64,000 bases of DNA from NCBI GenBank assembly GCA_025766275.1, contig JAFKAC010000017.1, forward strand, positions 62,001-126,000. The letters are read 5' to 3'. A program made the position numbers and the translations under genes. The notes under the pieces are model-generated. The model worked only from the letters and a program-made list of their open reading frames with translations. It was not told the origin of the DNA and searched no databases. This document shows, piece by piece, positions 27,445-50,755 of the stretch (positions within the stretch are counted from its first letter, which is position 1; each line of letters starts with the position of its first letter). This DNA is from Lactarius indigo (lineage: Eukaryota; Basidiomycota; Agaricomycetes; Russulales; Russulaceae).

Positions 27445-28266
27445 TCAAAAGATGTTGGCCATTTCAAGCATGATGATAACTTGGAATTGGCCAGACGGGC
27501 CCGGTTCCAGACGGATCACGCTTACATATGCATCTGGGTTATTGAGGAAGTGGCCCGCCAGACGCCTCCGGTTCTCTGTGATTGATGCTTCAAGTATCGG
27601 AGCCTGGAGAAACCCCACATTAAGGGGGCCTGCTCTCTCTTGGACAGGTACATAGCGAAAGTTGTCTTGTATCCCCTTTGTCAAGATCTCAGCAATGAAT
27701 GTGAAGAAGGATTATAACACGCACGACAGCTTCTGGGGCGACCCACTGTTCCTGCATATGGTGTGGTCCAATCATGGGAGCTTCAACAGGATTGTTGACA
27801 CCTTGGTCTTGACCCACATACGGAGCAAAGGTATTCTGTAAGAGAATATGCAATCAGATCTTGTGTAACATCTTGCCATGATATAGGCAGCTCACATCAA
27901 AATCCCTTGGATGCTGTTGAGGGAACACGGTTTGCGGTCCGCGTTGCATATCAGAACACTGTGGACAGGGGCAATTTGGGGTGGCAGCATTTGCGTCCTG
28001 TCTGGGTGCGAGTGTATTTGGTTCAAAAACGGGGCCCGGATGTTCTGCAGTAGGTGGGATCTGGAGAATAAGGCACCAAAATGAGTGTTCATGGACGCAG
28101 GTATACGATAAGCTTGTACCACATGACGGTGCTGTGGGTCTGTAGAAGGGATGGTCCGTTGGCTTTCCATTTGAGAGAATTGAGGCTGTTGTGGTACGGT
28201 GATGAGTGGGTAAAGGATCTGAAAGTAGCTGTTGGGTTGCAGGGGGAGGTACTGGGGACACGCCAT
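27445..28266 (-). CDS. unknown clustered family, intact member S1
   Basis: I do not recognise this family. Four exons, 28266-28120, 28060-27896, 27835-27725 and 27675-27445, give 217 residues. Exon 1 is rich in Q and P (MACPQYLPLQPNSYF). Exon 2 begins IPPTAEHPGP and holds a cysteine cluster, NCPCPQCSDMQR. The C-terminal exon holds the most conserved part: RRLAGHFLNNPDAYVSVIRL, then EPGPSGQFQVIIMLEM. The same architecture, intron positions and size occur in genes at 36392 and 42693, and in broken copies at 47.7-49.6 kb. No signal peptide or transmembrane segment is seen. Intron 3 (27724-27676) uses an acceptor shared with the relics. Function unknown. Confidence 0.62.
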
Positions 28267-29502
28267 AACCTCCAGCCTTAAAAACCATGGCGTCTACCAG
28301 CCTGAGGCCAACCTGAGGCCGTCGCAAGGAGTGTTGGATATGATGGTGTGAGTGAGCCAAGCAGCAGGTCTAGTAAACCTCCGAGTAAATCTCCTTTTTT
28401 GGTAAGAAGTTTTTTGAGAATCTTGGATGGCAGTGGATACCACCGCCCTCGCCGCCGTTTTAAGCGCTACCTCCAAATACATTTAGCCATTCTCGGCGAG
28501 GGAGCGAGCAGATGAATTGGCTGCTCGGAAGGATGTTTCACACGTGCCCATCTTTCGGCATGGCACCACAATTCGTCTATAATCCGGTGACCATCTAGTT
28601 ATATATACAAACTGGTATAGTAGCTGGTAGCTGAGTTTTAATCCCTATAGCGTCTATTTCTCGTGCAACCCCCCCCGTATTCTTACTGTCACCCGAATGC
28701 ACCTCTATCGGTGGGCAGACGATGGATATACCTCCTCTCTGAGATACCCCCGGAGTTACACTGCACCTACGAGACGCTTGCCAGTGCCAGCATCCTCAAT
28801 GAGACTCATGGACGATTGGCCAAGTAACCTGGGCAAGTCTATGGAATTTTCTGGGCCTATACCGAGGCTCGGAGCTCGAGAACATCAACAAGGAAGAAGC
28901 AGGGTTCGCCAGAGGCATATTAGACGAGTCCGAGATACGGCCAAGTTTACCGGTCTCCAGCCTGACAGCAGAACGCATCTGCCAGGAGGTCTTGCGGTGA
29001 TAACACAGCCATAGAAAGGAGTGGGACGAGGTGAGAGCTTCTAGGTGAGAAGGAAAACATCACTGTTCGTTGTACGAAGCTACAAAACTTAAAGTAGTTC
29101 ATACAATATATTCTGTTGTCGACACATACATCTGTATCACTGCTTCCATTTGAGTCGTCCTTCATCACCAAACACTGGCCCTCACATGAATCAGCCCTGT
29201 CGTCCCTCTACGGGTAGCGACTCCTTGTGTGAACCAAAATTCACGGGGATTTATAACAAAACCTCGAGGGCTAGTGATACTCAGCAATAGGAGTAACGTT
29301 TACAGTAAAGTACTACACAAGTGTGTAGTGCACCAAATAAGATCTCCGGCTCGGAATAAACGATGTAGATGGGGCAATAATTGCATTATACGGAGAGGCG
29401 TAGTGTGCACCGAAAAGAATGAGGCTCATGACCTGAAGATAAGAGGAGTAAGGAAGATACCCTAGAGAAGAAACGGTAATCGGCCTACCCAATACATCCG
29501 AC
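28267..29502. other. intergenic with possible promoter of S1
   Basis: A TATATATA-like element near 28600 could serve the minus-strand S1 gene, although it is over 300 nt away. The region 28680-29020 is open on the plus strand but unrecognised. Confidence 0.4.
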
Positions 29503-29832
29503 CTACATCTCAATTACATCGAGCACTGCGGGACGCGATGTTGGTATGAGCTGACTGACAGAATATGTCACAGATTTTGACTCCGAGATGCTTCCCTGCT
29601 CAGTACTGTCAGCGCTTCTGCCCACAATGACGAGGACCGAGTATTTAAAATAGAGCGGTCGACTTACCCCACGCCGTCTCGAAGGAGGGAACTCGGTCAA
29701 TGGCACATCCGGCATTGACTGTGACCCGGTGAGCTGGTCCGCCATCGGAGTCGCGAACAGGCGCGAGATAGTGGACAGCACTGATCGGGAGAGTGTGGGC
29801 TGGGAGCGAGAGGGCGAGAATGGCTGCGACAT
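29503..29832 (-). CDS. hypothetical small protein, two exons
   Basis: Exon 1 (29832-29668, start MSQPFSPSRSQ, 55 codons) is S/P/R-rich and ends at a strong donor GTAAGT. An acceptor GAGCAG opens exon 2 (29595-29503), which keeps the phase and ends after 30 codons, giving 85 residues. A TATA-like element lies upstream at a plausible distance. It could be a genuine small gene or the 5' stump of a larger one. No family recognised. Confidence 0.35.
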   Translation of the reverse strand: MSQPFSPSRSQPTLSRSVLSTISRLFATPMADQLTGSQSMPDVPLTEFPPSRRRGVSRPLYFKYSVLVIVGRSADSTEQGSISESKSVTYSVSQLIPTSRPAVLDVIEM

Positions 29833-29938
29833 CAAGGGGTGCCTAATCTGTCTCCTTGGGCGGGTACGTGTGTGTGCGTTGGGGCTTTGTCGCGGGAGTG
29901 CGAATGGGTTGGAAAAAACGGAGCGCGGACGGTGTTTG

Positions 29939-29947
29939 TTATATAGG
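29939..29947 (-). promoter_or_regulatory. TATA-like box
   Basis: CTATATAAC on the minus strand, about 107 nt before the ATG at 29832, followed by a CA- and C-rich leader as in many fungal promoters. Confidence 0.4.
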
Positions 29948-29952
29948 AGGGA

Positions 29953-31507
29953 TTAGGAGCCAGGAGCCAAGCTCGGCCTTGAACCTGCCCAGGGCTCGGT
30001 GAGTCGGGCTTGGGGATGACATGTTGCGTCACTGTCAGCCGGACCAAGTCGGAAGCATCGAGTAAGCATCGCTCCCTGCATTGGGTCACCGAAATCGTGT
30101 TCGTGATGACTAATTGTAAACTTGGACATTTGGTCCCTTGTTGGTTGGATCACTGATCGCCTGCAAGATCGCCTGTATTCTTTCGATTCGCCTGTAGCGG
30201 TGACCAAGAATGAGCGTGATTGAATCAACGCCAATCGTCTCGGGCGGGAGAGGGCTTGAGGCTGAGGTGCAACCAAGGGTGCAACGACCTAGGGTTGGCA
30301 ACAGTTCGGCGACCGGCCTAACTTCCGAGCTCCCGAATGCCAAATATAGATACTCCTACGTCACACTCACTAGAAAGTTAGTAAGCCTTAAGTCACGGCA
30401 AAGTGGGGATGGGCGATCCTTTCAGCCTTGCGCACTCTGCAGGTGCAAGTACGACAACTCATTTCGATGCACTCTGTGTGCTCGCAGAATCATGGAGGCG
30501 TCATGATAGGGTCCCGACTGGGCGCGAGAAGTGTGGTGCGGGGAGTGCACTACCCTTGGCGCTACCAGCGAAAAGCTTTGGCAAAACCTGCCTCCGAGTT
30601 CTAGAGGTAGGCCGCCGATTTCGACCGATGGTGCCGCGGACATGAGAGAGTATTTCCTTGCGCACCCGTCTCCGATATAACCCCATCGTACCTGGCACAT
30701 CACTCCGGTGGTTCTGGGCCAAGGGTCAATTGACCTGTTTGGTCGATCCCTTTAACGTTGCCATCGGCCTCTGCAGCCCCTTGCCAGGCTGTTACAATAG
30801 ATTGAGCAACCGAAAGGCCCCATCCCGAAATAACCAGTCCCAGTCCCACGGACGAAGTGACTTAGATCTCGGAGATGTGCGCGCTCGAACGGGCTTAGTA
30901 GATAGGCCCAAAGTTGGACCTGGAAGTGTGTAATTGCTCCCGTTTGGTGTACGTGCCAGGAACATAAGAATCCTGGGCACAGGGATAACGCTGCTCCGAG
31001 TTCTCTCCTAGTCGTCATGTGTTATTTACCGACTCTCTGAAACCCCTCCCCTTCTCAGATGGCAGAGGATTGCTGAGGTATGAGACCAGTCGAGGTCTTC
31101 GGGGATGTGAAGTGGGAATTCTATCTTTGCCTAGGCAAGACTCGGACGTTCAACGGACACTTAGCATTTCTACGCTCTCGACCCCCACAAAGGAGCGGAC
31201 TTCATTGTCCTTCCGCGACCTTGCTCTAGAGCGACCCTATTAGCGGGTTTCGTCTTCCCACTGTCGTCTCACTGATGACATCCTCTTCGACGGCGCTTCC
31301 CCCCTGCTAATATCAGGTACGATTGTCACCATTGGCGAGCGCAGAGGCTCAGTTTTTCCCCTTGTATCGTCCTACCGCTGTGATCAGTGTGACAAGAGTC
31401 GATTGCAACACATTAGGTCATATCCCAGCTACGAACAATCCACCCCATCTCTTTGAACAACAAAACATTCGGGCATGGCAGCCACCGATAACAGCATCAT
31501 GGGGCGG
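29953..31507. other. 1.5 kb without a recognised gene
   Basis: Short frames on both strands. None has family resemblance, a splice plan or a signal that I can support. Confidence 0.5.
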
Positions 31508-32800
31508 TCAAACGGACTTCCAGCCACTGAGCCCGCGCTGGTCGACTTGTCCCTCCCACACGTCGGTGTCGGTGTTGTTGCGCCACACGAAGCGGCGCGA
31601 GGAGAGCCATAGCGACACTGTGCGCAGGCTGGGACAGAACGTGTGCAGCTCCGTGACGAGGGTGCGCTGCAGCGCGCCGGTTGGGAGCGGCATCCAGGTG
31701 CCGAGCTCGAACTCGAGCATCACGAGCGCCTCGAAACGTGTCAGCGCCTCGTGCACGGCAGTGCGCTGTAGGGACGCGCAACGACGGCGCAGCGATAAGC
31801 GACAGAGCAACCAAAAAAGAGCAAACGTCAGTAGATATGCCAGGCGCGCGGAAATAGAGAGGGGCTAGGGCTAGGGAGGGAGAGGGGGGCTTACCGGGCC
31901 GGTTGGCAACGGGAGTACGCCGAGGTATCGCAACTGCGGACAGTGCTGCGCGGCGAGCGCAACAATGTCGGCCGTGCACGCCTCCGGGACGTCAAATAGG
32001 CTCAGCGAGCGCAGTGTCTTGTGTGCGCATGCGAGACGCGGAATGAGGCGTAGCAGATGCGCGTCTCGGCCCGTGGCCCGCGCATCGGCACCGGAATCGC
32101 CGAGGACTTGCAGGTGCGTGAGCGGGTTGTGTACGACCGCGTGTGCGAGGCGCAGCGGACACTCGGCGGTGGCGAGGAAGGGTAGATCCATCTTCTCGGG
32201 CTCGGTCTCGGTCTCGGGTTCGGGTTCGGGTTCGGCAACTTCCGCCGTTGGGTGCGCCACATCGCCCGCGTTGGCTCCCTCGCGCGATCTTGCACCAGCA
32301 GGGGCCAGCTCAGGAGGAGAGAAATCGTCCGCGAGCTCGAGCACCAAGAGCGTTCGCAGCGCCGTCTGGGTGCGCACAAATGCCGCGGCTTGGGCTTCCA
32401 AGGGGAAGCAGAGGCGGAGGTCGCGCAGGCGGAATGACGGCGCGAGTGGCAGGACCCAGGATAGTTGCACGCCGCGCGCGTCAATGGCGAGGGCGTCGAG
32501 GCGTGGAAGGGCTTCGAGAGCGCGCTGAAGCGCTTGCCACACGCGCGGAGGGCCGGGCCCGAGGACGAGTCCACGGACATGTGTGGCCAACGCAGGTGTA
32601 CGTGCCAATGTTTCGCAAGCAAGGAGAGAAGTGGGGGGGTTGGTGAGAACAAGAGAATGGTACAGGCGCCGAGTGGCAGACGAATGAAAGGACTTTGTGG
32701 TAAGACAAAGGGAAGGAAGGTCGGCGACGCGTGCATACGACGTTATAATTGAGACAACGACGGGGTCATTCAAGGCAAGGGCTGCAGGAGAAGAGACCAT
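31508..32800 (-). CDS. F-box/LRR-like protein
   Basis: Exons 32800-31895 and 31765-31508 give 387 residues. The N-terminus (VVVSIITSYARVADLPSLCL) and the following SSATRRLYHSLVL resemble the degenerate F-box start of Agaricomycete LRR-type F-box proteins. After it come leucine-rich stretches such as LRDLRLCFPLE, LRTLLVLELADD and LRSLSLFDVPEACTADIVAL. An acidic repeat of E-P and E-T pairs lies in the middle. The intron (31894-31766) is long for this locus, has GTAAGC and CTACAG borders and keeps the phase. The motif evidence for the F-box itself is weak, so it may be only an LRR protein. Confidence 0.75.
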
Positions 32801-32929
32801 TACGAAAGGTGGCGATAGTTGACTCTCATCCCGGACATAACAGCGACCAATTTATTACTGTAATAGCGTGAGATGCGATACTTACACGAGTACGTCAAAG
32901 AGATAACAAACAGAATGGAACACAACAGT

Positions 32930-32934
32930 AAAAA
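32930..32934 (-). terminator. RNA polymerase III T-run
   Basis: Five T residues on the minus strand, a few nucleotides after the 3' end of the tRNA gene. Confidence 0.7.
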
Positions 32935-32937
32935 TAA

Positions 32938-33009
32938 TGCCCGCTGGCTGGATTGAACAACCGACCTCATCATTACGAGTGACGCGCTCTACCACTGAGC
33001 TAAGCGGGC
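32938..33009 (-). tRNA. tRNA-Thr (anticodon CGU)
   Basis: A 72-nt cloverleaf on the minus strand without an intron. The acceptor stem is GCCCGCT with AGCGGGC, the D arm starts GCTC, and the anticodon stem is CGTCA with TGATG around the loop CTCGTAA. The T arm is GGTTG-TTCAATC-CAGCC, and the discriminator is A. Anticodon CGT reads ACG (Thr). The B box GGTTGTTCAATCC is intact. Confidence 0.93.
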
Positions 33010-33180
33010 TTCCCTATTAAGTAGGACATTGTGAGTCGTGTACCACCTCATACCCATTGACAAATCACGACAAAATCCAGGTCCAGCCTAGCCACCCACA
33101 CCACTCACTCATACCCAGTCAAGCACCCTTTTCTTTAACATCTCCCACCAGTATAAGCTACCTAAATTCATACATATACC

Positions 33181-34923
33181 ATGGCGGACCCCACAAAAGC
33201 AGAGATGGATCAGGTCTTCAAGGTTCTCAAGACTGGCAAGGGTAACAAGGTGTGAAAAACTTCGCTGTATTTGTGATAACAGCTGATCTAGCTTTTAGAT
33301 GTGCTTCGACTGCCAAGCTCGCAACCCGACGTGGGCTAGTGTTACATTTGGCCTGTACATTTGTCTCGATTGTTCCAGTGTACACCGCAATATGGGTGTG
33401 CATATCTCCTTCGTTCGGTTCGTCCCTGCTCCGTCCTACATATGTACCGTGCCGTCTGACTCCATGCTTCCAAGTTCAACCAACCTCGATAGTTGGCAGC
33501 TCAACCAACTGCGAACAATGAAGGTCGGTGGCAATGGTTCTGCCACCGACTTCTTCACGCGACATGGTGGCTCTTCGTTACTCAGCGACTCTGATGTCAA
33601 GAAGAAATACTCGAGCCGCGTGGCCGAGCTTTACAAAGAAGAGCTTATTCGCCGCGTCAAAGAGGATATAGCCCAGTGCGCCGCGTTGCAATCGTGATCG
33701 ACTCCCTACTGCTTACCGCGCAAGTTCACCCACACAGGTTTCCGAACGGTATCGTCGTCGACGGCGTAGATACCTCTAAGTCTGCCGCTCAACCTGCTGC
33801 TGCAGCCGAAGAAGAGGACTTTTTCTCGTCCTGGGACAAACCCGCGCCCAAAGCCAAGCCCGCTTCCCCAAAACCCGCCGCACCGCCGTCTATCGGGCGC
33901 ACTGTGTCCGCCCCTACCTCCGCTTCCCCCTCGCCCGCCCCAGCTGCCGCAGCACCGCGCACCGTCACGTCCTCCTCCCTGCGCTCGAACTCCTCCGCAG
34001 CCACCAGCGCGCGCACACTCACCTCGAGCAGCGCTTCGTCCACAGGCACGGGCGCAGGTGCCGCGCGCCCTGCAAAGAAGGGCCTCGGTGCCAAAAAGGC
34101 CGCACCGGTGGACTTTGCGGAGGCCGAGCGCCGCGCTGCTGCTGAGGCTGAGCGGATCCGCCAGCTGGGCTACAATCGCGAGCGCGAAGAGGCCGAAGCG
34201 CAGGCAGCACGCGAGGCCGCAGCGCTTGAGCTGAAGAACAAGAACGCTGCCGCTACGAGCGCGGGCGCTAAACAGGCGGCCACTTCCGGCGCCAGTTCTG
34301 CGGACATGGAGAGGCTCGGAATGGGAGTGAAGAAGCTTGGTTTTGGTGCGTTGCCCCGCGCTCAACCAGCGGCACCGAAGACGTGTGTTGTTTTGCTTTT
34401 TTTTTTGCGCCCGGGAATTGCCGGTATAACTGACGTTTTTGTCTCGACGGACGTCATCTTTTGCCTAGATCGTCCGCACCCGTCGCAGACGACGCGCCAA
34501 CTACGGCCCGCGACCGTTTTGGGAGTCAGAAGGCGATTTCGAGCGATATGTTCTTCGAGCGGGGATCGTATGACCCCGACAGCGTCGCCGAGGGACGGGC
34601 GCGACTCGCGCAGTTCCAGGGTGCCACGTCCATCTCTTCGAACCAATATTTCGGTCGCGAGGAAGAGGAGATGGTCGCGCAGGGATCGGATGGAGGGTTG
34701 CTGGGTGATGGCAGCCTTGCAGGCATCGAGACCGCCGCGCGCGATGCTGTAACTCGTATCATGGCCAATCCTGACGTGCAGAATCTGGGTGAGAGCCTAC
34801 GTACTGGCGCCCTCAAGGTATGTGACCTTTCTCGAATGCAATGCGGGGATATCCGAATCACTGACGCTGGGGGTTGTTGTCGCCCAGCTCTCGGACTATC
34901 TGGCACAGATGTCAGAGCGCTAG
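33181..34923 (+). CDS. GLO3: Arf GTPase-activating protein, Glo3/ArfGAP2-3 type
   Basis: Stimulates GTP hydrolysis on Arf1 during COPI vesicle transport at the Golgi. Exons 33181-33249, 33299-33417, 33475-33675, 33738-34382, 34469-34817 and 34888-34923 give 472 residues. The GAP zinc finger is present: [17 protein letters not shown], then [20 protein letters not shown], with the catalytic Arg in [26 protein letters not shown] follows. The middle is low in complexity (A, P, S), then comes a charged coiled-coil stretch. The Glo3-type C-terminal motifs are seen: [29 protein letters not shown] and LSDYLAQM. The donor of intron 2 is a weak GTTCGT. A decayed duplicate lies at 40.4-41.3 kb. Confidence 0.93.
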
Positions 34924-36391
34924 GTTTACGGGTCCAGGCGCAGAATCTGTGGGTGTGGGATGGACGAGGAGCTAGTCGATGGCGTTCTTTTTTTTTCGAT
35001 CGAGACATTGGTTGTATGTCACCCTTGCCTAGATGAATCTGTACCCACCCAGCTGCGCGCTGTGAATCTGACCCACCCAGAGCTTCGAGTTTCTGATATA
35101 CCTTTCTGTGATGGGGGCGCGACATGCGCACGCGTGCGGTGTACGGAAGCCGCGCACAACCACTGGTAAACCTACAGCATTGGAAATTCGATTGATCGTA
35201 CTCGGAAACCCCCGAGACAAGTGTTCCTGTTCCCTCCGCTCCACTTCCCTACTTCGCTCGACTAGGGGCAGAGCGGCACGCCACTCACATTAGCTCGAAG
35301 AGGCGCCGGCACTAAAGTTAGTCTTGTGCGTTGTATGCTCCTTCTGGTGCTTGGGTTGTCTATACACTAAATAGCTTGAATGATGTCGACTTCCAGCGCT
35401 TTGTGCATGCCGACATTTCTGGACTCCTTGTAGTTGTCTGGAGCGTGGATGAACAGTGAGTAAGGATCGTTTAGCCCTTACTTGTCCTTTTCCTGTCTGC
35501 ACAAATTTTTTTGGCTCTCCCTTGGTCCTTTTATTTCGTCGTTTTAAATTCTTTAAAAAAAATCCCTCACATGCAACGAGGGTGAAGACGAAATCGTATT
35601 TCTTCTACAGACGTATGGCCCGCGGAAATCCAGACCTCCCCCTAAACCCCCCCGCTGATAGTTAGCGGAAGATCGAGTCGGATGCATTGGATGAGCCAAG
35701 GCCCGGGTCGAATAGGGCTTGCGTGGAATTCCTCGGTCTCAGCTCTCAGAAGCGGCAAGGGCCGGAATTACCGGCAAACCCCCTGGATGTTCAGCGCAGG
35801 GCCTGGCCCGCGGATCCACCTCGACGACTTCGTCAAGTCGACAACTACCGTGCTGGTTAGTATTTTCATGACACAGTGTTGGAATTGAGTTGGCTTTCCC
35901 GTCCCAGCGGTACCTTGGGGGAACCCATCCGTAGGAGTCGCTCTTTTATCCTAACTTCAGTAATAGGCGAGGTACTAGGAATCGAGGATCCTTGGTGGCC
36001 CAAAACATCAGGCGCCTAACGCGTTCGCCTGACCCCGCAGATCTCCGCCACTCGTCGTAGTCTACATAAGGCACGCCTGATAAAAATTGCATGGAAGACG
36101 CGGGTGTTCGAAAGCATGGAGCAAGGGACTCGTGTTACAGGCGCAACACCCCGCGCGTGTACCAACTTGCCACTCCTGGGCTGTTGCAACCCATTGCGGA
36201 CTGTCTTTTTGTTTTGATTACGGAGAGTGCCGTTTTTTCCTCCGAAGGCTCCAATCCCTGGAATCCGCACTAACACTCGCGTTCTTAGGCGCTCACTTCT
36301 GTGTTCTGGTGGGTCGTTCTATAAATTTCCCCAGTACCCGCCTTGTTTTTGTTTGGAAAACCTCCTCATCTCACTCAACAAAGGCTATCCA
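34924..36391. other. spacer, left copy of a duplicated region
   Basis: About 1.5 kb between the ArfGAP gene and unknown-family gene A. Most of it matches 41313-42692 with gaps, and 35860-36320 also matches 38900-39500. No gene is seen in it. Confidence 0.6.
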
Positions 36392-37232
36392 ATGGCCCAT
36401 GGAAGACGTGAACACCTGAAAGACGACCGCTCCAACGGAGAAACAAATCCTCGTTCCACAGAGGCGTCGCAGTACCACCCTTCCGAGAACGAACACACGG
36501 AAGTGCCGTCGCAGAGTATGGTGAGAATTCACGACGGTCCCCGGCGTAGTCATCCTGACCACCCACATGACTTGCTTGGAGCCCCCACCTGCTGCTCCGC
36601 ACTACTTTGGCTATGCTCCTTGGAACGCCCCACCACCGCATCCCGGCGTTCAGGAACCGTGGTATGCGGTACCGGGTGCCAATGATGGTGTCCCGGGCCA
36701 TGGCGCTTGGCACGAACCGCCGCGACACAATTACCCCCCTGTTCCAGCAATGGCATGTCTGCTTACCGCGATGGTTCTCGTCGCTAATGCACATTGTACC
36801 TCTAGAGCGCTGCGTTGAGGCACATAGATCAGGGAGCGGGAAGCGCCGGTGGAGCCATTCCATACCACTGGGATAACGGGAACCCTGCAGGTGCAACATG
36901 CGTTTACGCCGCCCCCCCGCTCGCTTCCGTGAGTTTTTTCTCTACACGCCGACTCAGTCTCTAGTCGCCTAACATACGAATAGAACTCTCAGCCTAACGG
37001 CGTGGCGGGCCCTACACCGGCGGCTAACGTTCACTCCGTAGTTGGCCCAGGTCCGGACGCGCAACCTTATACTCCCAGTATCGATGCGCCTGTTTCTTCA
37101 GAAGCTCTCATGTCCCTGGCAAGGAGCCTCCTCCTCGATCTGGGGACCCGCGTTAAGGCACTCAACATGGAAGCGAGCGGGCGTGGTGGTTTGAGAGTAA
37201 CCATCACACTCGAGACGGTGGACACCGTCTGA
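36392..37232 (+). CDS. unknown clustered family, intact member A
   Basis: Four exons, 36392-36520, 36582-36752, 36806-36928 and 36984-37232, give 223 residues. Exon 1 begins MAHGRREH and is hydrophilic. Exon 2 is rich in P, H, Y and W (PPPAAPHYFGYAPW, then HGAWHEPPRHNYPPVPAM). Exon 3 holds GGAIPYHWDNGNPAGATC, and exon 4 ends in the conserved block LARSLLLDLGTRVKALNME, then GRGGLRVTITLETVDTV. Intron 2 starts with GC instead of GT, as in member B. It is a close paralogue of the gene at 42693 and a distant one of S1. No signal peptide or membrane segment. Function unknown. Confidence 0.7.
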
Positions 37233-38869: not shown

Positions 38870-38879
38870 TGAGTCGCAC

Positions 38880-39753
38880 GTCCCGGGGAATAACTAAATG
38901 GATTCAATAACAAAGCCCCCCGGTGTGTTCGGTGCGGCAACTCCCGAAGCATTTAGTGAGATATACGATGCTGTAAAGTACCGGTGTAACCAACGGCACC
39001 TCTCGGGTCTCGAGGCGTACAGTGCGGAATATCTCAGGACTTTACCAAGCTGACAGCTACTATGCCAACGAGTCGTAGATACACTGTTAGGATTGACTCG
39101 GCTTCCTTGTCCCAGCGGAACCTTGGTAGGACCTACTCGTAGGAATTGCCGTTTCATCCCAACCTACTGTACGGTGCTGAGTTATCTCACCAAGCCACAT
39201 TGTGTATGTTATGTATTAGGCGCCTACTCCTGACACCACAGATCCTCGCTACTCGTCACTCTGCGCTGGTATTTTAGCACGGGATTAGCGCGGGCGGCGC
39301 AACGCAGTGTGTGTGCCAGCCTGCCACTGCCGGACGTGAAACTGTTACATGTTACAGCTCATTACGGTCTTCCTGTTATGAATACGGGGATTGCCGTTTT
39401 GCCTTGGAGCGCGCCAGTCTCTTGTCTGGGGATCCGCACAACCATTCGCGATCTTAGGCGCCATTCTGTGTTCCGGCGGGTCGTTCCGACCACGCATAAT
39501 ACGGGCGAAGTGGGGTGATTGCCGTGAACTATTTGATCGACAAGTACCCGTTCAAGGAAGGCGACAGGGAAGGCGATATCTTTTCTTAACTTCCCAATAG
39601 TCCAGGACCAATGCTTTCGCCGCTTTTGTCCCTCATGGCTCCCTCGCTAGGTATTACAAACTGGATGCGCGTACCGATATAATCCATATGGAACCAAGTG
39701 GAGATGGTATCGTGGAGACGACTATCGCACTCAAGGTGGCAGACCTCGTTTAA
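38880..39753 (+). pseudogene. fragment of unknown-family gene with its 5' flank
   Basis: 38900-39500 matches the upstream flank of member A (35860-36320). After a deletion the end of the coding region remains at 39634-39753, reading SLARYYKLDARTDIIHMEPS and then GDGIVETTIALKVADLV before TAA. Exons 1-3 are missing, so it is a partial copy. The part 39840-39960 also resembles 44091-44200. Confidence 0.65.
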
Positions 39754-40429
39754 TACATTCAGAGAGCTGTAACAAGCAGAAGGGGTCGAGTAATATTAGT
39801 AAGGATTCTGTTGTTGCACATGATATCGAGAGAACAGAAAAACAAAACGTGGGGTTCACCTGCCAGGAGTCACTGTCCTAGATACGGCGTCCGGTCTGAC
39901 CGTGATTGTATCTATCATGACTGCATATGGGGAGACCAAGGTAGGAACAGGAGGCCCACACGGATAGTCCGTAAAGATCGCAGGAGGCGAGCGAGACCCT
40001 ATTGAACATTAGAAAATGGTGACCAATGACGCACCAAGTAGCTCCAGCCTCCAGGGCAGATCGGGTTTCTCGCTAGTAATCAAGCTCCAATAGCGAGAAC
40101 GCTGCGAATGAAAAATAACTCTCGAATACGTTGTCGGTGACTCTGTGGGATCAGAGAGACGGCCGGTGAGTTTCAGCTCACGCGGTGCGGTTGCTGTTAA
40201 ATCGGTTCGTGTGGCTGGTTATTGGGTGATCGGCGCTTCGCGCAAGAGTGGGTTTCATTTCAGAGGCGTGCAATTACAAGCTCCAACTCCAGCAGGGGTG
40301 TTTGTATGTCCGCGTCAGGTCGCGTCAGGCTGTCAAAGGTACAAGATCGTAAGTTACATGACGTACAGTACAGAATGTGATACTGTAGTCCTCGTTGCCC
40401 TTAGGACTGGCCCCTCGGCTCGGGGATTC
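39754..40429. other. intergenic, no intact gene
   Basis: Includes a weak match of 39845-39930 to the small frame at 44091. The frame open from 40145 runs into the ArfGAP relic. Confidence 0.45.
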
Positions 40430-41312
40430 CATATCCGCGGCCTCCCCACGCACTCCCCACGCACCATCACGGTTTCCCTGCTCCCCGAGTCCTTGCGCTC
40501 AAAATCAGCCTCAGCAGCCACCACATCGCGCACGCCCAACTTGAGCACTTCTTCTACCAGCATATGTGCCGCGCCCCCCGCAAGAGTCAAGAAGGGGCTC
40601 GCGGCGAAGAAAGCAGCTCCGGTGGACTTTGTGGAGGCTGAGCGCCGCGTGGCTGCTGAGGCTGAATCTTGGGTTGAACGGATTTGTAAGCTCGATCGCG
40701 AGCGCGAAGAGGCCGAAGCTTGCAGGCAGTACTCGACCTGAAGAACAGGAGCGCCGCCACTATTCCGCGTGCGTGCTAAACAGGCGGTATGGTGTAGATG
40801 TGGAGGGGCTCGGAATGGGAATGAAAAAAATGCTTGCTCGGTTTTGCAGTGCCCCCTCGTACGACTAGCGGCTACATGAGCGGCCACACATTTTTCCGCA
40901 CTCGGGAATTGCCGTGATAGACCTTTTTGTCTCCAACTTGAGCTTGAACCTAGCCACCGCACGTCATCGTACTGTATCATCTTTGCTCAGATTGACCGCA
41001 CCAGTCGTGTCGTGGAGGACGCGCTGACCACAGCCCGTGACCGCTTCGGAAACCAGAAGGCGGTTTCGAGCGATGTGTTCTTCGAGCAGGGTTCGTTCCA
41101 CGCGGCCCCTTTGATGTTCAAAACACACGACAACACTTCCGTCACCCAGTCACTGAGTAGATAAAGAGACCCCTTACGATGCTAACGTCTTTACAACAGC
41201 CGGCCTTGGTCGCATGTTCTGGGATATAACCCTTCTCAGCACGGGGATATCCGGAGTTTTGACGCTGGCGGCCGTATGACCCAATTCTCGGGTTATCTGG
41301 AACAGATAACAG
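40430..41312 (+). pseudogene. decayed copy of the ArfGAP (GLO3) gene
   Basis: 40440-40870 follows exon 4 of the ArfGAP gene at 33.9-34.4 kb ([20 protein letters not shown]; the parent has [20 protein letters not shown]). An insertion and frameshifts then end the frame at about 40741. Around 41000-41080 the DNA matches exon 5 (DRFGNQKAVSSDVFFEQGS), and around 41276-41312 the last exon (in the parent, [11 protein letters not shown]). The zinc-finger exons are absent. It is a 5'-truncated relic made by the same duplication that produced unknown-family member B. Confidence 0.85.
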
Positions 41313-42692
41313 AGCGCTCATTTTGGGAGGCGGCGCTGCGGAATTTGTGGGTGGGACGAGACGGAAAGATGCGTTCTTTTTTCGAGTTCTCGAGTGAGAT
41401 AGTCATCCTTGCCCCGAAGGTTCTGAACCAGCCGGGCTGTGTGCGTGAATCCGACCCTCTCAGAGCGCCGAAGGTCTGGTTTACCTTTCCATAATCGAGG
41501 CGCGGCATTGCGCGGGCAAGCGCGGTGTAAGGAAGCCGTCGAACTTGCCACCTAGTGACTGCAGAACTGTATTGGGAATTGACTGCTACGTCCACTTCAC
41601 TACGTGCCGTGCTCCACTACAGTCGGAAAGCCCCGAGAGAAGGTATAGTGCTCCACCCTTGTCCTACTCTCTACCGCGGTTCACGTGGTACCACTGATAA
41701 GAGCTCAGATATGCTTACGCTGAAGCTAGTCCTTGCATTGTAGTATACTCCTAGGCTGCTCTGCAGTAAGTTTTAGACTCTTTTCCACGACGACATTTCT
41801 AGCTGCCTCGAACAATTGTATTGTTTTACAGGGTGGAGTCTTCCAATTCTTACCTATCGTCCTGTCTGCACCAGATCATTTCTCGCTCCTTTTCGTATTT
41901 TAACAAACAAAAATCCACCACTTATGCCGAAGGTAACGACGTGATCGCACAAGGAATGGTCACCGGTCACCGATCACTGACACACCAGTCATTCCGTACC
42001 ACCGTGGAAGTGGTGCAGTCCGTGGTGAGCGGGAAATCCCGAACGTCTTCCAAAGCTTCCGTAGATGGTGAGCGTTAGTAAGTATAGGAGACAAAGTTGA
42101 TGCACAAACACCGAGTCGTATGGCGGTGTGAGTAGCGCCTCCAGCGCACAACTCCTCGGCTCAACTACGGCAACGGCCGGAAGTAGTTTGTGACAGGCCT
42201 TGGATAGAACGTTCCGAACCAGGTACCAGCAAAGTGAAAGTCTGAATGCCTGTGCTGGGCGAGCTCTTACCTTCTCCCGCCCCCGCAGATCTCCGTGACT
42301 CGTCTGTCTCGCTACTAGGTACACATGGAAGACGTAGAGTCGTAGTGCATGTATCGTAGCACCTAGACCCGGGTGAGCGGCGCAACCCCATGCATGCGAG
42401 CCAACTCGGTGCCAACTTGCCAATACTGGACTGGACTGGTCTGGACTGTTACATGTTACAGCCCATTAAGGAATACAAGCTTATTTTTGGTTCGGGGAGT
42501 GCCGCTTTGCCTCCGAGCGGCCAATCTCTGGTCTGCGGGAATCTGCGCAAACATTCACGTTCTTAGATGCTGTGCTGTGTCCTGGAGGTAGTTCTGACCT
42601 AGGTTCCAAACTGGTTAGAATGATATAAATCTGGCCAGCATCCACCTTGGTTCTTTCGAAAATATCCCATATCACACTACAAAGGCGATCCA
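41313..42692. other. spacer, right copy of a duplicated region
   Basis: Matches 34924-36391 in order, with gaps. It links the ArfGAP relic to member B exactly as the ArfGAP gene is linked to member A. No gene is seen. Confidence 0.6.
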
Positions 42693-43529
42693 ATGGCCCA
42701 TGGAAGAGGTGAATACTACCAGAGAGACGTCCGTTACAGTGCAGAAACATCTCTTCGATCTACAGATGCGTTTCAGTACCACCTTTCCAAGAATGATCAC
42801 ATGGACGGGCCACAGCATGGAACGGTGAGCATTCATGGTGGTCCCTAGTTGGCTTAATAGTAACCTACACGACTCGTTTTGAAGCCCCAGCCCACTGCAC
42901 ATTACCATGACTATGCCCCTTTGACTGCCCCACGGCCCCATCCAGGCCTTCAGGAGTCCTACTATGTGCCATCTGCCAATGATTGTGCCCCTAGCCATGG
43001 CGCTTGGGACAAAATGCGACATAATTTTCCTCCCGTTCCAGGAATGGCAAGTCCGCTCCTCATTGTTGTGTTCTCGTCGCTAACTCACATTGCAATTCTA
43101 GAGTGCTGCGTCTCGATACACAGATCATGGAACAGCGAACCCCGGTGGAGCTATTCCATACCACTGGGATAACAGGAACCCTGCAGGTGCAACATGCGCC
43201 TATGCCCCACCGCTCGCTTCCGTGAGTTTTTCTGCACCCCAACTCAGTTCGAGTCTCCAGTTGCCTATCATACCAAATAGTCCTCTCAACCTAACGGTAA
43301 TGCGGGCCTTACACCGTCTCCTAACGTTCGCTCTGTAGTCGGCCCCGGTCCAGATGGACAACCTTATCCCTCCGGTATCGATGCGCCTGTTTCCTCAGAA
43401 CCTCTCATGTCCCTGGCAAGAAGCCTCATCCTCGATCTGGAGACCCGCGTTAAGGTACTTAACATGGAAGTAAGTGAGCGTGGCGGTTTGAGAGTAACCA
43501 TCACACTCGAGACGGCGGACACAGTCTGA
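42693..43529 (+). CDS. unknown clustered family, intact member B
   Basis: Close paralogue of member A with the same plan: exons 42693-42824, 42885-43046, 43102-43221 and 43281-43529, giving 220 residues. It begins MAHGRGEYYQRDVRY. Exon 2 has HGAWDKMRHNFPPVPGM, exon 3 GGAIPYHWDNRNPAGATC, and exon 4 ends LARSLILDLETRVKVLNMEV, then ERGGLRVTITLETADTV. Intron 2 begins GCAAGT, the usual form of a GC donor. The coding region is open and all phases fit, while the ArfGAP copy on its left has decayed. That contrast suggests selection or recent duplication of the unknown gene. Confidence 0.7.
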
Positions 43530-43734
43530 GGTGGTTGGTATAAAGTTGGGAAGTTGGGAACGGAGGTTGTGGAGCATATTGATAATGAAATGCTGTCTGG
43601 AATAAATGGCACGCGTTCTTCCCCCCACAAGACCGACTGAATTGTGAACAATGTGAACAACAATTTCCAGAAACACTAGTAAGAGTGTCACATTAGGGGT
43701 CAGCACGGCTACTAGTATCAAGGACGTTGCGATG

Positions 43735-43997
43735 ACACAACCTACGTTTTATTTATTTTCTAAATTGGGGAAATCACAGGATCATGGGGCTGATCGGCTA
43801 ATACCCACAGCGGGGCCAGTACAAACAGAGAGTCTACACCTACCACCGAAAGCTCCAGGTCCTCCGAGTTTCTCAGGTCCCTGGCCAGACATTACATACT
43901 CGATCCGAGGACTAAGGTCGGCACAATCCACATGGAGCCGAGTGGGAACGGTCTCTTAGAGATGATTGTAACAATCGAAGTGGTGGACACCGTTTGA
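43735..43997 (+). pseudogene. C-terminal fragment of an unknown-family gene
   Basis: 43880-43997 reads SLARHYILDPRTKVGTIHME, then PSGNGLLEMIVTIEVVDTV and TGA. This is the last-exon block of members A and B. It is most like the fragment ending at 39753. Upstream exons are missing. Confidence 0.65.
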
Positions 43998-44090
43998 TGC
44001 ATTGGTATTCAGAGAGCTTATTGGGCAAAGGTGTAGAGTGGTACAACCGGAGAATGTTCTATCGTAAAAGCATGTAGGAAAAAGAGCCAA

Positions 44091-44300
44091 GTGTCGGACA
44101 CTCTTTCAGAAGTCACTGTTCCAGATGCGGCGCCAGGTCCAGCCATTATAATTAAAGTCGACCCCAAAGGGTTATATTTGATTGGAAAGGAATACGGAGA
44201 GGGGGGGATCCACGCAGTGTCGGTGTCTGTAGAAATTTTAGGAAGTGAGGGAGATCCTATCGGGCGCTGTAAAACGGGGTCAAATGACGTGCTACGGTAA
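44091..44300 (+). CDS. small hypothetical frame
   Basis: A 69-codon frame (MSDTLSEVTVPDAAPGPAII start) with alternating hydrophobic residues as in beta strands. A degraded relative lies at about 39845-39930. It may be a missing exon of the duplicated locus instead of a gene of its own. Confidence 0.25.
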   Translation: MSDTLSEVTVPDAAPGPAIIIKVDPKGLYLIGKEYGEGGIHAVSVSVEILGSEGDPIGRCKTGSNDVLR

Positions 44301-45042
44301 GTAGCGCCATGGCTGTCTCAAAGGGCAGTGGTTGGGATCCCGGCCAAGGATCGAGTTTTGAGTTTCGGCGCCGGGAATGCTGTGCACGAAAACAACTACG
44401 GATGCCGTTGGTGACCCTACGGGATTAGTTTATTACCGCATTACATCTGTCCAGTTTGTCAGGTCCAATGAATACCCCCTCTTAGTCCCCTTCCTGATGG
44501 AAATATTTGTTCATCTACGCCTTCAGCGCATTGCACAAGCAAGCCGTGCGTCCGCGTCAGGCTGTAAAAGTTTGGTCGCTGTACATACGTACATGATAGC
44601 CCCGGCTCCTCGGATCAGGTATTCCACATCCGCGGAGCCCAAGTGCTCTTCCTTGCTAAGGCGATTGCTGGTTTTTTGTTGCACGGATTATCTGCCGTGG
44701 CACGAACAAGGCCACGATCGAGACCACGATTGTCTGGGAAATATGAAGGACGGAAACTGGGCCCGCCTTCCAAGCATGCTAATCAAGCCCGACAACATAG
44801 GCCAAAGGATTGCCACTATTTGTGTAACAAGAGCTTAACTGAGATCGAGAACGGTGGTTCATACGTTCATACATGAAGTTGGGTTGAAGTCGTTGATTGG
44901 GATTGGGTTAGGGTTTGCGGCACGCGCCATCCGGTTTGTTTGTATTTCATCGCGGGTTCATCAGCCTCGACGCACTTACACCCCCACTCGCATCTACACC
45001 AACGAAGCGATCTATCCCACCTCCATCTATTCCACGACAACT
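44301..45042. other. intergenic with a third ArfGAP-linked fragment
   Basis: 44540-44650 matches 40310-40450, the DNA before the ArfGAP relic. This suggests a third, shorter copy of the duplication. Otherwise it is the promoter side of the EB1 gene. Confidence 0.45.
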
Positions 45043-46121
45043 ATGGGCGAGTCGCGTTCTGACCTTCTTGCATGGCTCAACGAGCTACTGCAGATCAACT
45101 ATACCAAGATCGAGCAATGCGGTACCGGCGCTGCCTACTGTCAGATCCTCGACTCTATCTATCGTGTGTTTTTCGATAATTTCTTCAATCCTTGTTCACA
45201 AGTTTGTAAATCTACAGTGGACATTCCCATGACACGCGTCAAAATGAACGCAAGACACGAATACGAATTTATAGCGAATTTCAAAGTGATGCAGAATGTT
45301 TTCAAAGCCAAGCGGATAGAGAAGGTGCGTTCGTGTCCTTGTCCAACACAACCTCTTTCTTATCTTTGTAAATGCAGCCCATCCCCGTAGAAAAACTAGT
45401 CAAATGCAAAATGCAGTACGTCATTTGTTTTTTTTTTCTCGCCTCGCGTCAGAACCGCCACGCCGACTTTTTCACGTGCCCCCACCTTAACCAGGGATAA
45501 TCTCGAGTTTATGCAATGGATGAAACGGTTCTGGGATACCAATTACCCAGGACACCCATACGATCCCGTTGCGCGGCGGCGTGGCCAGGCAACCGACACG
45601 CCTGCGACTCTAGCCCCTCTCGCGGCGCGCTCAACGGCTACCCCCGGCGCTGGCAGCGGGCGCTCTGGAGGAAAGACGCCTATCGGTGGACATCGCGCGG
45701 GGAGTGCAACGGCCGTGCGCCATGAGGCGGTGGCCGAGCTTCAGGCACAGCTGAAAGAGATGTCCACGCACCTCGAAGGTCTCGAGAAGGAGCGAGACTT
45801 TTATTTCGCCAAGGTCTGTATTCTTTCCTTTCTTCCTACGCGTGGTGGCGCGTGTTTTCTTGTTGTTGTTGTTGTTTGGCTCACGCATGTACACTCACAG
45901 CTGCGCGATATCGAGATCCTGGTGCAGAACCAGATGGAAGAACTAGCAAAGGATGGTCGTGAAGATGCGACGCTGAATGAGATTCAGAAGATATTGTATT
46001 CGACCGAAGTACGCAGTCCATTACTCCTTCCTACTATGTAGTTTTGCCGACAAGTACACGACAGGACGGCTTTGAGGTACCGGAAGGCGGGGTGGCTCCA
46101 GATGAGGAGGAGACGTTCTAA
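45043..46121 (+). CDS. EB1-family microtubule plus-end protein (Mal3/Bim1)
   Basis: Tracks growing microtubule ends and recruits partners there. Exons 45043-45163, 45218-45324, 45378-45415, 45495-45813, 45901-46008 and 46065-46121 give 249 residues. The N-terminal calponin-homology domain is clear: SDLLAWLNELLQINYTKIEQ, CGTGAAYCQI, RVKMNARHEYEFIANFKVMQ and KLVKCKMQ. The segment FMQWMKRFWDTNYPGHPYD closes it. A G/S/A-rich linker follows, then a coiled coil (VAELQAQLKEMSTHLEGLEK to LRDIEILVQNQ) and an acidic tail ending EEETF. That is the EEY/F-type end recognised by CAP-Gly domains. The length is near the family norm. Confidence 0.94.
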
Positions 46122-46445
46122 GCGGGCCTCTTGTCTTACACACGTATAGCTAAGCATCACAACATCAATCATACCCCGTAGTTCCCCGCCTTTGCTTTGT
46201 CTGGTCTCTAGTACCGCTGTAATTTCTGCGTCTTCGTTAGTATATTCTACCCAATTGAAGCGAGCGTGGCTGAGTCAAAATACAACCTGATCGACATGAT
46301 TTACTGATAAGCTATCTCAATTGGGGTACGTTAGTTACCCTGCCCGCTGATCTTCCCCCGCAAGCCCCTGTGCCTTATATTGTAGGCCTGGGAATTCCTC
46401 GGACCGGAATTGGCTGCGTCGTTGAGCTGTCGTTGAGCGCCGTAA
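46122..46445. other. short intergenic
   Basis: 324 bp between two genes on the same strand; no feature seen beyond the flanks. Confidence 0.5.
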
Positions 46446-47495
46446 ATGGCAACTCGGCTTTTATCCCGCTTGCACAGGAGATCCACCCTTCGTAAAACCA
46501 CCATCAACAGCGCGATGACGTCCACATCTTCGACAAACTCAAATCGACAACGGTGGCCTCCCCCGCAACGAAACACTCCCGCGTCCGGAGAGCCCAGCAA
46601 CGCCACCCACCATGCTCGATCTTCACGGCACCCCCAAACCCAAGGGCAACAACGCTCGACACCTCGCCCAACTCACTTCCTTGCGCTCCCCATCGGCCAT
46701 CATGCCAACCTCCGCAACACCGTACAGACCCTCACGGCCTCCTGGCTCGCGCACGACCCGCCGATCGAAGGGCTTGACCCCTCCATCGTCGTCCAGCCGC
46801 GCCGCCTGCACCTCACGCTAGGCGTCATGGCTCTCGCGCCATCCCCGTCTAGCCGTGCCAGGGTGGACCCTGCAGTCGAGCAGGAAAAGGAGAAGGAGCG
46901 CGGCCTCGCAGCCGCAACGCGGCTCCTCGCGGACCTCGCTCCCCGCATCCGCGCCGTCCTCGCGCGTGCACCACTGCGCGTGCCGCTGGGCAGGCTCACG
47001 GTCATGCAGCCCGACGCGACACGCGCACATGTGCTTTATGCAGAGCCTGATACTTCCTCACCGGATGGCCGCCGCCTCCGCGCGGTTTGCGGTACGCACT
47101 TGCTTCCTCCGTGGGTTGGATTGTCGTGACTGATATTGCCCTCAGAGCTCGTCCGCGATGCATTTATGGAGGCGGGCTTTCTCGCTGCCGATCGCCGCCC
47201 ACTCAAGGTACGCTACGATGCACTCTCCATACCAGACGTGCACTCATGCCAGTGGTGTCGTTAGCTACACTGTACGCTCCTCAACACCAACTACCGCCGC
47301 CCGGTACCCGGCCAGCGGCGCGCTGCTGGGCGTGTTCCCTTCAACTTCACGACGTTCCCGTCCGCAGCGCGTGACAACTCTGACCTTGGCATGTGGGCGG
47401 TAGACGAGCTGCAGATATGTGAGATGGGGAGCTGGGCGCCGGATGGGGCTTATGTGCGGGTCGCTGGATGCGACCTTCGACCTGAGAATAGTTGA
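46446..47495 (+). CDS. AKAP7/ASCC1-like 2'-5' RNA ligase-fold (2H phosphoesterase) protein
   Basis: Exons 46446-47091, 47146-47207 and 47265-47495 give 312 residues. The AKAP7 2'-5' RNA-ligase-like domain starts at THFLALPIGHHANLRNTV. The two 2H motifs are HLTLG (after VVQPRR) and HCTLLNT (exon 3). The family end block WAVDELQICEMGSWAPDG is followed by YVRVAGC. Members of this fold act as 2',5'- or cyclic-phosphate RNA esterases or as RNA-binding parts of larger complexes; which one applies here is unknown. The N-terminus is a basic, low-complexity tail of about 85 residues. A copy of the 3' end lies at 48921-48976. Confidence 0.88.
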
Positions 47496-47689
47496 CACAG
47501 CACGTTGAATTTGATCTCGGAGTAAACTGATACAGTAGGGTCGGTTTACGTGCTAAACTGCCCCACGAGTTTGTAGGCCCAATGCGCGATTGTAAATTGG
47601 CCCGATAGTGGTGTGCAACCCCCAAATTCACATGATCCAAAAAAAAACTCAAAACCCAAAACAACCGTTTGACACGTGTAGATGCGTAT

Positions 47690-48420
47690 GTAAGCATTTT
47701 CCTTGCATTCGTATTACAGTACGGTGACTATGGTGGAAGATCCAGGTTGATCCACGAGCAGTCACACCCGTCCTCAGGTCGTGCTTCCAAGTTCCCATTG
47801 TATGTCTACCTCCCAACAGGACAGCTCCGCGATTCATCCACCATGCCAGTGCACGCAAGACGAGCATGGGTACGACCCCAAAGTTGGCAGGAAGGATAAC
47901 AGAGTGCATACGTTGCCCGGGCTGCTAAGGCAGAGGGAAAATACACGTCGACGAGGGGCCAAAGTTGGAGATTTCTCAGTACGAAGTACTTTAAAAAACA
48001 TATTACTGCCAGGGAGCGCCTTCACATTACAATCCCCCCCACCCCTTAGTGTAGCTTGTTCATGCTGCGTCCGGTCTGGGCCCACAGTCTTCAGCCGGGA
48101 TATAAATGGATCCAAAAAAAAAAAGCCTATATACCGACAGGTGAAGATGCTACTATCCAGAATTGCCGTTGTGCATTGTGTTCTGATATACGGCGCACTC
48201 AACTTGACAATACATGGGCAAAGTTTACCCTCTGCAAACCGCCGTGCGTGCTAATACCCTCCTCCCTTGCATGCCCATCATCAACGTCCTGACATAGCGA
48301 ATCCAAGATAACTTCGACTGTGCACCTATCTACGAGAGAGCGCTGGCAGGCCCCGGGCTCACTTTATCACAGTCAGCTCTATATGAGACTATAGTTTTGA
48401 ATGTCGAGCTAATGCCTCAT
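47690..48420 (+). pseudogene. broken unknown-family copies (S2)
   Basis: Two pieces related to exon 2 of S1/S3 are seen: 47796-47875 (MSTSQQDSSAIHPPCQCTQD) and 48144-48235 (DATIQNCRCALCSDIRR). In the second, exon 2 sense runs straight into exon 3 sense (DNTWAKFTLCKPP). The last-exon start follows at 48299 (RIQDNFDCAPIYERA) and then loses resemblance. There is no continuous frame. Confidence 0.55.
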
Positions 48421-48920
48421 AATCAGGAGCTGGACAGATCCTAGAACAAACCATGCTTGTCCGGCCGATTGGTTAATTCCAGGAACGAAAACCTGTCCAT
48501 AAAGTATTGATTGGCAAGAAGCACGCCAGCATAAAATTACGTACTACTAGTAAAGGCAACAAAGGCAACAATGAGAGAAATGGTCGCAAGGTCTGTTGCA
48601 TCCCCGTTGCATCCCCGTCACAGCGTGGGCTAAATGTAGTGTCCCGTGGGACCCCTTATCAATCCCTACAGGTTAGGGGCACCACCTCGTGTTTGCCTCG
48701 AGGCTCAATATCGGGTCGGGTGTATGATTTAGAGCAAGCCTGGAGGAACGAGGCATGGAATAGGCGCATGTTTCACCCTCCGCGTAGGTCGCTGGGAACC
48801 CGGAAATGATATACAGTATGCCAATCCCGGGTTGGAGAAATGGAAGGAAATCGGCAAGAGCCGACATATAGTAATGATCTATCCATGGCGATCTATCTAC
48901 CTTACCTTTGACATTTAGCG
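48421..48920. other. intergenic, no gene recognised
   Basis: About 0.5 kb. It may contain the first exon of the S3 copy, which I could not define. Confidence 0.4.
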
Positions 48921-48976
48921 CTGGACGGGGCTTATATGCAGGTGTTGGATGCGACCTCCAACCAGAGCATAGCTCA
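48921..48976 (+). repeat. copy of the 3' end of the 2H-phosphoesterase gene
   Basis: Clearly similar to 47431-47490 (GGGGCTTAT, TGGATGCGACCT and the closing ATAG are shared). It shows that the S2 and S3 copies arose by duplication of a block that began inside the last exon of that gene. Confidence 0.65.
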
Positions 48977-48977
48977 G

Positions 48978-49602
48978 ATACCACCCACTCCAGAACCTCC
49001 GGGTCCCGCTTTCCAGCCAAATATGTCTGCCTACCAACAGGGTTATGATACAACCATTCAGAATTGCTCCTGTGCATGGTGTTCTGAGGTGCAGCGCGCT
49101 CAGGCCGCACCACCAACTCAGTACCCCATTGGACACCAGGACCCAAGGCACTTCGTAAGCAGCCTTCGTGACGACGATAGCGTCCCATAGCTGATCGCGT
49201 CCTCTTTCGAAAGGGCGCTGTCACTCCACATGCCAGTGTGAATCAGGACCAAGGTGTCGGCGGCCGTGTTGCCAGTGAAACTGCCTTGATTGCACCTGAC
49301 CGTGCATGGGCACAGTTCGTCCCTCCGCAAACTGAGGTGCGCCCTAATATTTTCCCCGCACACGCATGACTGAGGTCTTGACATAGAGGATCCAAGATAC
49401 CTTCGGCTATGCACCTATCCATGAAAGAGCGGGCCCTTCCAACACGGCGTTTCCCCGGGCTCCGACACTCGATGCGTCAATCGCAGAGAATCGCAGGCGA
49501 CTTGCGAGCCATTACCTTAACAACCTGGATACATATGTGAGCATGATCCGCCTAGAGCCAGGCGCATCTGGTCAATTCAAGTCATCATCACGCTTGAAAT
49601 AG
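48978..49602 (+). pseudogene. unknown-family copy S3, frameshifted near its end
   Basis: Exons matching 2, 3 and 4 of S1 can be read: 48978-49154, 49214-49336 and 49387-49602. Exon 2 has IPPTPEPPGPAF and the cluster NCSCAWCSEVQR. Exon 4 has RRLASHYLNNLDTYVSMIRL and EPGASGQF. Directly after that block one base is missing compared with S1. The frame shifts and stops at TAG 49600-49602, removing the last conserved strand. No first exon with an ATG was found. This is the most recent-looking of the broken copies. Confidence 0.6.
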
Positions 49603-50690: not shown

Positions 50691-50699
50691 CCCCTCCCC
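50691..50699 (-). promoter_or_regulatory. polypurine tract of element A
   Basis: GGGGAGGGG on the minus strand, directly before the 3' LTR. This is the usual place for the plus-strand DNA primer. Confidence 0.75.
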
Positions 50700-50755
50700 G
50701 GTATGGTTAAAGAAAAGTTTAGAAAGAAAAAAGGTGAAGGAAGGGTGTAAGGTAA

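What the first reader, a model, noticed from the sequence alone, without database searches (positions are those of the whole stretch)
27445..49602. A clustered gene family of about 220 residues with no recognisable relatives
Members S1 (27445-28266, minus), A (36392-37232) and B (42693-43529) share four exons, three introns at matching places and 217-223 residues. All have a hydrophilic start (MA...), a proline-rich exon 2 and a conserved end. The conserved end reads roughly LA-x3-L-x5-V-x2-L-x-E-x2-GxxG-x-(V)-x-I-x-LE. At least four broken copies lie at 38.9-39.8, 43.7-44.0, 47.7-48.4 and 49.0-49.6 kb. I recognise no known domain. Repeated local birth and death is typical of fast-evolving lineage-specific genes, such as those under conflict or self/non-self roles, but no function is shown.
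Basis: partly seen in the sequence, partly recalled or inferred. Interest (0 to 1): 0.85.

Follow-up and report, generated by a model that had tools for sequence, protein, structure and literature searches.

The report
Milkcap-mushroom orphan gene family
These are real genes of an undescribed protein family seen so far only in milkcap and brittlegill mushrooms; most of each protein looks floppy, with a small folded tail, and the family looks old and kept by selection rather than a product of rapid genetic conflict.

Summary
The window is Lactarius indigo, one haplotype of a two-haplotype assembly. S1, A and B are real genes: four exons, three phase-0 introns, open in both haplotypes, matching GenBank models. 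They do have relatives: named hits come from 11 Lactarius species and Russula emetica, and the own genome holds at least 39 places with the conserved end. No significant Pfam or PDB match was found. A- and S1-types are homologous through that end (hhalign probability 89, E 2.1e-6), predicted as helix-strand-strand; most of the rest is low-confidence, probably disordered. The S1 branch also carries a conserved CxCxxC segment. Selection is purifying: dN/dS 0.45 between A and B, 0.42 pooled over alleles. S1-type paralogues form multi-species clades; mating-type genes were found only on other contigs. The conflict/self-recognition reading gains little support. Most likely these are non-secreted adaptor-like proteins whose tail binds itself or a partner, which is inference only.

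The parts
27445..28170 (-).
   Evidence: spliced model; open in both haplotypes; end of P0019; start by homologues
27448..27597 (-). conserved helix-strand-strand end of S1
   Evidence: profile match; structure of the L. psammicola homologue P0020
36392..37232 (+). A: intact A-type gene, exons 36392-36520, 36582-36752, 36806-36928, 36984-37232, 223 residues, GC-AG intron 2
   Evidence: open in both haplotypes; end of P0001
37095..37229 (+). conserved end of A
   Evidence: profile match
39637..39750 (+). last-exon piece of a decayed A-like copy (upstream DNA 39078-39491 resembles that of A and B)
   Evidence: 14.4 bits with the independent profile
42693..43529 (+). B: intact A-type gene, exons 42693-42824, 42885-43046, 43102-43221, 43281-43529, 220 residues, GC-AG intron 2
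   Evidence: other-haplotype allele identical to GenBank model P0006
43392..43526 (+). conserved end of B
   Evidence: profile match
43860..43997 (+). isolated last-exon fragment, open in both haplotypes
48132..48342 (+). remnant of an S1-type copy (parts similar to the 49-kb copy); conserved end not found
   Evidence: self-comparison; no profile match
49032..49613 (+). S1-type copy with CxCxxC segment; frame broken near its end in this haplotype, open in the other (C68:289902-290045, model P0050)
33299..35152 (+). ArfGAP gene beside A (approximate; duplicated with it)
   Evidence: Pfam PF01412 on 33299-33694; self-comparison
40490..41538 (+). partial copy of the ArfGAP gene beside B, 64-68% alike, domain region not matched

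Best explanation
Shown: a protein-coding family seen so far only in Russulaceae (Lactarius, Russula), of which S1, A and B are intact members in a cluster of L. indigo contig C79 (homologous cluster on C68), with further members dispersed in the genome. Shown: members share a C-terminal segment of about 45 residues, and the coding sequence is under purifying selection. Predicted: that segment folds as helix-strand-strand, most of the Pro/Ala-rich rest is disordered, and there is no hydrophobic signal-like start in the models examined. Inferred, the mechanism I think most likely: intracellular adaptor or regulator proteins. The helix-hairpin tail pairs with a second copy or with a partner through its exposed strand edge, while the variable disordered arm, with a possibly metal-binding CxCxxC loop in the S1 branch, chooses what is brought in; duplication makes paralogues with the same tail and different arms. 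By step: selected Russulaceae-restricted family about 0.93; tail as a binding module about 0.35; adaptor/regulator role about 0.25.
For: Relatives: 18 hits for A, 25 for S1, 257 for the profile of the end, of which 120 were listed; every named hit listed is Lactarius except Russula emetica P0092. Homology of the two types: hhalign probability 89, E 2.1e-6 for one comparison of separately made alignments. Gene models. Selection: A/B 0.45 (CI 0.31-0.68); A alleles 0.34, B alleles 0.48, S1 alleles 0.42, pooled 0.42 (0.27-0.64); pooled last 50 codons 0.30 (0.12-0.69), pooled rest 0.47 (0.29-0.82). Structure: H136-155, E160-169, E175-183; the last five ten-residue blocks at pLDDT 86, 87, 94, 94, 77; residues 62-123 under 50; the same order of elements in an A-type model. 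CxCxxC columns at 90% or more in the 22-row S1-type alignment, in one named Russula protein and two environmental relatives, and in a family-like place upstream of the end in 13 of 32 own-genome loci scanned. Orthologues in several species. Highest 12-residue mean hydropathy near the start 0.93 among 25 chosen models.
Against: No expression, localisation, binding or metal data. Self-pairing is a guess from a monomer prediction. The A-type model is weak (mean pLDDT 51.5). The A-type lacks the CxCxxC segment and so do 19 of 32 loci scanned, so a metal site is not a family-wide feature. The hydropathy scan is crude. Restriction to Russulaceae rests on a word-based, length-limited search that scored 7,996 candidates and listed 120 of 257 hits; longer proteins with the tail could not appear. 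Introns of B do not diverge more than its exons between haplotypes (8 of 174 against 34 of 663 sites), unlike A (14 of 169 against 26 of 669).
Confidence: 0.5

Rival explanations
1. A fast-evolving conflict or self/non-self family: paralogues and alleles diversify to be recognised.
For: Clustered paralogues and broken copies; 3 of 11 cluster positions compared differ in presence or openness between haplotypes; allelic protein identity 209/222, 202/220 and 165/182 for A, B and S1, against 197/198 for an ArfGAP exon, 298/308 for the ORF at 31.9-32.8 kb and 184/192 for the AKAP7-like piece.
Against: dN/dS below 1 in paralogues and pooled alleles; multi-species orthologous clades; mating-gene families found on other contigs; no transmembrane or signal-like start in 25 models by a crude scan.
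Confidence: 0.1
2. Sequence-specific DNA- or RNA-binding proteins with a helix-hairpin tail like a part of a MADS box or double-stranded-RNA-binding domain.
For: Same order of helix and two strands; SRF complexes and Loquacious dsRBD3 appear low in the fold lists.
Confidence: 0.1
3. Secreted symbiosis effectors (mycorrhiza-induced small secreted proteins).
For: Lineage-restricted small proteins in an ectomycorrhizal genus; the S1 branch has conserved cysteines.
Against: No signal-like hydrophobic start in 25 models; 12 of the gene numbers do not occur in the main text of the Lactarius-Pinus transcriptome paper PMC8417538 (supplements not available).
Confidence: 0.06
4. Not genes: chance open frames or a piece of a transposon.
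For: Gypsy-type elements begin about 1 kb beyond the last copy, and some copies are broken.
Against: Open in both haplotypes and conserved across species with introns in place; purifying selection; no transposon profile in the proteins.
Confidence: 0.02

Closest known systems
Unnamed Lactarius hypothetical proteins in GenBank (for example H4582DRAFT_402027, H4582DRAFT_1962185, H4582DRAFT_1962207 of L. indigo)
   Same: They are the other-haplotype alleles of B, A and S1
   Different: Annotated singly, without a family, domain or function
Taxonomically restricted (orphan) multigene families in general
   Same: Limited known range, no known domain, disordered, tandemly duplicated
   Different: Has a recognisable folded end, conserved introns and several orthologue groups
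MADS box (SRF-TF) core, or the first part of a dsRBD
   Same: Order helix, strand, strand in the model
   Different: No profile match, no significant fold match
Mycorrhiza-induced small secreted proteins (MiSSPs)
   Same: Small, lineage-restricted, ectomycorrhizal host lineage
   Different: No signal-like start seen

Membership tests
Taxonomically restricted gene family | homologues only within one clade | tested here: inconclusive
   all named hits Lactarius (11 species) or Russula emetica; search word-based, length-limited, 120 of 257 hits listed
Taxonomically restricted gene family | protein-coding with conserved frame | tested here: met
MADS box transcription factors | SRF-TF profile match | tested here: not met
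   no Pfam family for S1, A, B; in 22 S1-type members only two unrelated families, one member each, E 0.092
MADS box transcription factors | dimer with DNA-binding helix | not testable with these tools
   monomer model only
dsRBD | third strand and second helix after the first two strands (recalled) | tested here: not met
   the S1-type model ends four residues after strand 2
MiSSP-type secreted effector | N-terminal signal peptide | tested here: inconclusive
   hydropathy of first 40 residues at most 0.93 in 25 chosen models; no trained predictor was available
MiSSP-type secreted effector | induced in mycorrhiza | tested here: inconclusive
   12 gene numbers absent from the main text of PMC8417538; supplements not available
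Self/non-self or mating locus gene | linked to HD or STE3 genes | tested here: not met
   HD-type matches on C237, C256, C215 and STE3 matches on C113; the cluster is on C79/C68
Self/non-self or mating locus gene | diversifying selection | tested here: not met
   dN/dS 0.34-0.48 for alleles, 0.45 for paralogues, gene-wide estimates only
Transposon part | transposon protein domain | tested here: not met

The most novel reading that the evidence does not exclude
The helix-hairpin tail is an undescribed self-association fold that Russulaceae have spread over dozens of proteins with different disordered arms, and because the two nuclei of one mushroom carry different sets of intact members, the family helps tell nuclei or partners apart or tunes the dikaryon.
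Probability: 0.07. Interest if true: 0.75.

Novelty: new member of a known kind. Interest (0 to 1): 0.4.

Why it matters
Russulaceae are among the most species-rich ectomycorrhizal fungi (general knowledge), and genes restricted to them are candidates for what is special to the group. This report turns two genome-database guesses into a defined family with a profile, a predicted fold, old orthologue groups and two haplotypes to compare, so expression and binding tests can be aimed at named genes. If the conflict reading were true it would be more striking, but the selection data point the other way.

Tried and rejected

Mating-type linkage: HD matches on C237, C256 and C215 and STE3 matches on C113. 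C237 and C215 also hold dispersed family members, but over 500 kb from those matches.

Literature: eight searches showed no description of this family among the listings seen; from PMC8417538 I saw passages only, other papers as search listings only. The first of these searches assumed Rhizoctonia, a wrong first guess.

Direct BLASTP of S1 against B gave nothing significant (best E 0.47); the link needed profiles. The A-type tree places B outside A plus four other species' genes only with 88/90 support, so the date of the A/B split is open. The S1-type tree used 48 rows; six short named rows (P0030, P0042, P0072, P0079, P0081, P0138) and most unnamed rows were left out. One search read 14 minus-strand loci on the wrong strand; one search repeated them correctly.
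Full report
What the window is. The window is contig C79:62001-126000 of a 90.3-Mb, 291-contig assembly. Contig C68 of the same assembly has 1,129,905 bases, the contig length listed for L. indigo proteins P0001, P0006 and P0019, and its copy of B translates exactly to P0006. So the organism is Lactarius indigo and C68 carries the other haplotype, in opposite orientation.

The genes. A, B and S1 each have four exons and three phase-0 introns. Intron 2 of A and B begins with GC. All three are open on C68. GenBank models agree: B exactly, A and S1 as ends of models that start further upstream.

The broken copies. With a profile of the conserved end and one built without L. indigo I find six places in the window: S1, A, B, 39637-39750, 43860-43994, and 49465-49613, the last split over two frames. 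In the remnant near 48.1-48.3 kb the end was not found. The best of 20 shuffled windows gave 2.1 bits. The A region and the B region are one segmental duplication, including the ArfGAP gene: 75% alike over A/B, 64-68% over parts of ArfGAP, with no match to the region coding the ArfGap domain.

Relatives. A search with A gave 18 hits, with S1 25, and with a profile of the end 257 hits at E up to 10 among 7,996 scored candidates, 120 listed. Named hits come from 11 Lactarius species and Russula emetica. A-type and S1-type look unrelated in a direct comparison, but profiles built apart match through the last 64 columns with probability 89 and E 2.1e-6.

Census. Seven searches of the own genome give 39 distinct places with the end: 13 on C79, 10 on C68 and 16 on other contigs (C112 three, C215 three, C237 two, C51 two, C190 two, C264, C226, C191, C259 one each). 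These are lower bounds by the tool's own statement, and both haplotypes are counted. In L. tabidus two A-type genes and one S1-type gene bear close locus numbers on contigs of one length (V8E53_010654, 010656, 010672), so the linkage of the two types is probably old.

Anatomy. The predicted structure of an S1-type protein (L. psammicola P0020, 79 rows) has a helix 136-155 and strands 160-169 and 175-183, the last five ten-residue blocks at pLDDT 86, 87, 94, 94, 77; residues 62-123 are under 50. The A-type (P0006, 20 rows) shows helix 178-186 and strands 193-202 and 208-216 at lower confidence. No known fold stands out. S1-type members have a near-invariant CxCxxC in exon 2, also in Russula emetica and two environmental relatives; 13 of 32 own-genome loci scanned show it in a family-like place upstream of the end. 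The A-type lacks it.

Selection. Codon-bootstrapped dN/dS: A against B 0.45 (0.31-0.68); alleles of A 0.34 (0.14-0.84), B 0.48 (0.23-1.02), S1 0.42 (0.20-0.90), pooled 0.42 (0.27-0.64). Neighbours by a different script: ArfGAP exon 0.06, AKAP7-like piece 0.23, the ORF at 31.9-32.8 kb 0.31. So the genes are constrained, less than ordinary neighbours. In A the introns differ more between haplotypes than the exons (14 of 169 against 26 of 669 sites); in B they do not (8 of 174 against 34 of 663).

History. In a tree of 48 chosen S1-type proteins the L. indigo S1 allele P0019 pairs with L. psammicola (99/94) and then L. tabidus (91/94); other clades with 99-100% bootstrap hold four to six species. 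There are also likely recent duplicates, or alleles, within L. deliciosus and L. pseudohatsudake. This is a set of old paralogues with some turnover rather than wholesale rapid birth and death.

Haplotypes. Of 11 cluster positions that I could compare between C79 and C68, three differ: the 49-kb copy (broken in the window, open on C68), C79:133873 (one stop) against C68:267578 (none), and C79:186530, for which C68:247001-254671 holds only a 71% relative. A twelfth position, C79:101640, was not compared. I did not check assembly errors, nor how often ordinary genes differ in this way.

Mechanism. Nothing here shows function. The best-supported guess is a non-secreted adaptor or regulator, with the tail as self- or partner-binding module and a disordered arm that varies between paralogues. 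The conflict reading is left at about 0.1.

Noticed in passing
window 454-2437 and 3825-5762: A direct tandem duplication, 79% alike over 2 kb; the coded protein reminds me of tyrosinase (recalled; a piece of it had no Pfam match).
   Followed up: no
window 20047-21545 and 23450-24901: A tandem pair of alpha/beta-hydrolase genes, about 72% alike.
   Followed up: partly
window 8217-10088 and 10104-11522, minus strand: Two adjacent related long open frames without a Pfam match; F-box-like by recall only.
   Followed up: no
window 50400-63989: Gypsy-type retroelements, one apparently inside another: a 296-base repeat at 50400/63694 (99%) and a 532-base repeat at 52538/59884 (100%), with reverse transcriptase and integrase profiles.
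   Followed up: partly
window 36753-36805 and 43047-43101: GC-AG introns at the same place in the two paralogues A and B.
   Followed up: partly
L025 (C79:977799) and L027 (C237:295252): Two apparently decayed copies of one S1-type relative far from the cluster, with similar reading frames.
   Followed up: no
L014 (C191:3921) and L015 (C259:257027): A dispersed member on two contigs that are 99.4% alike over 3.1 kb, far closer than most haplotype pairs compared here.
   Followed up: no
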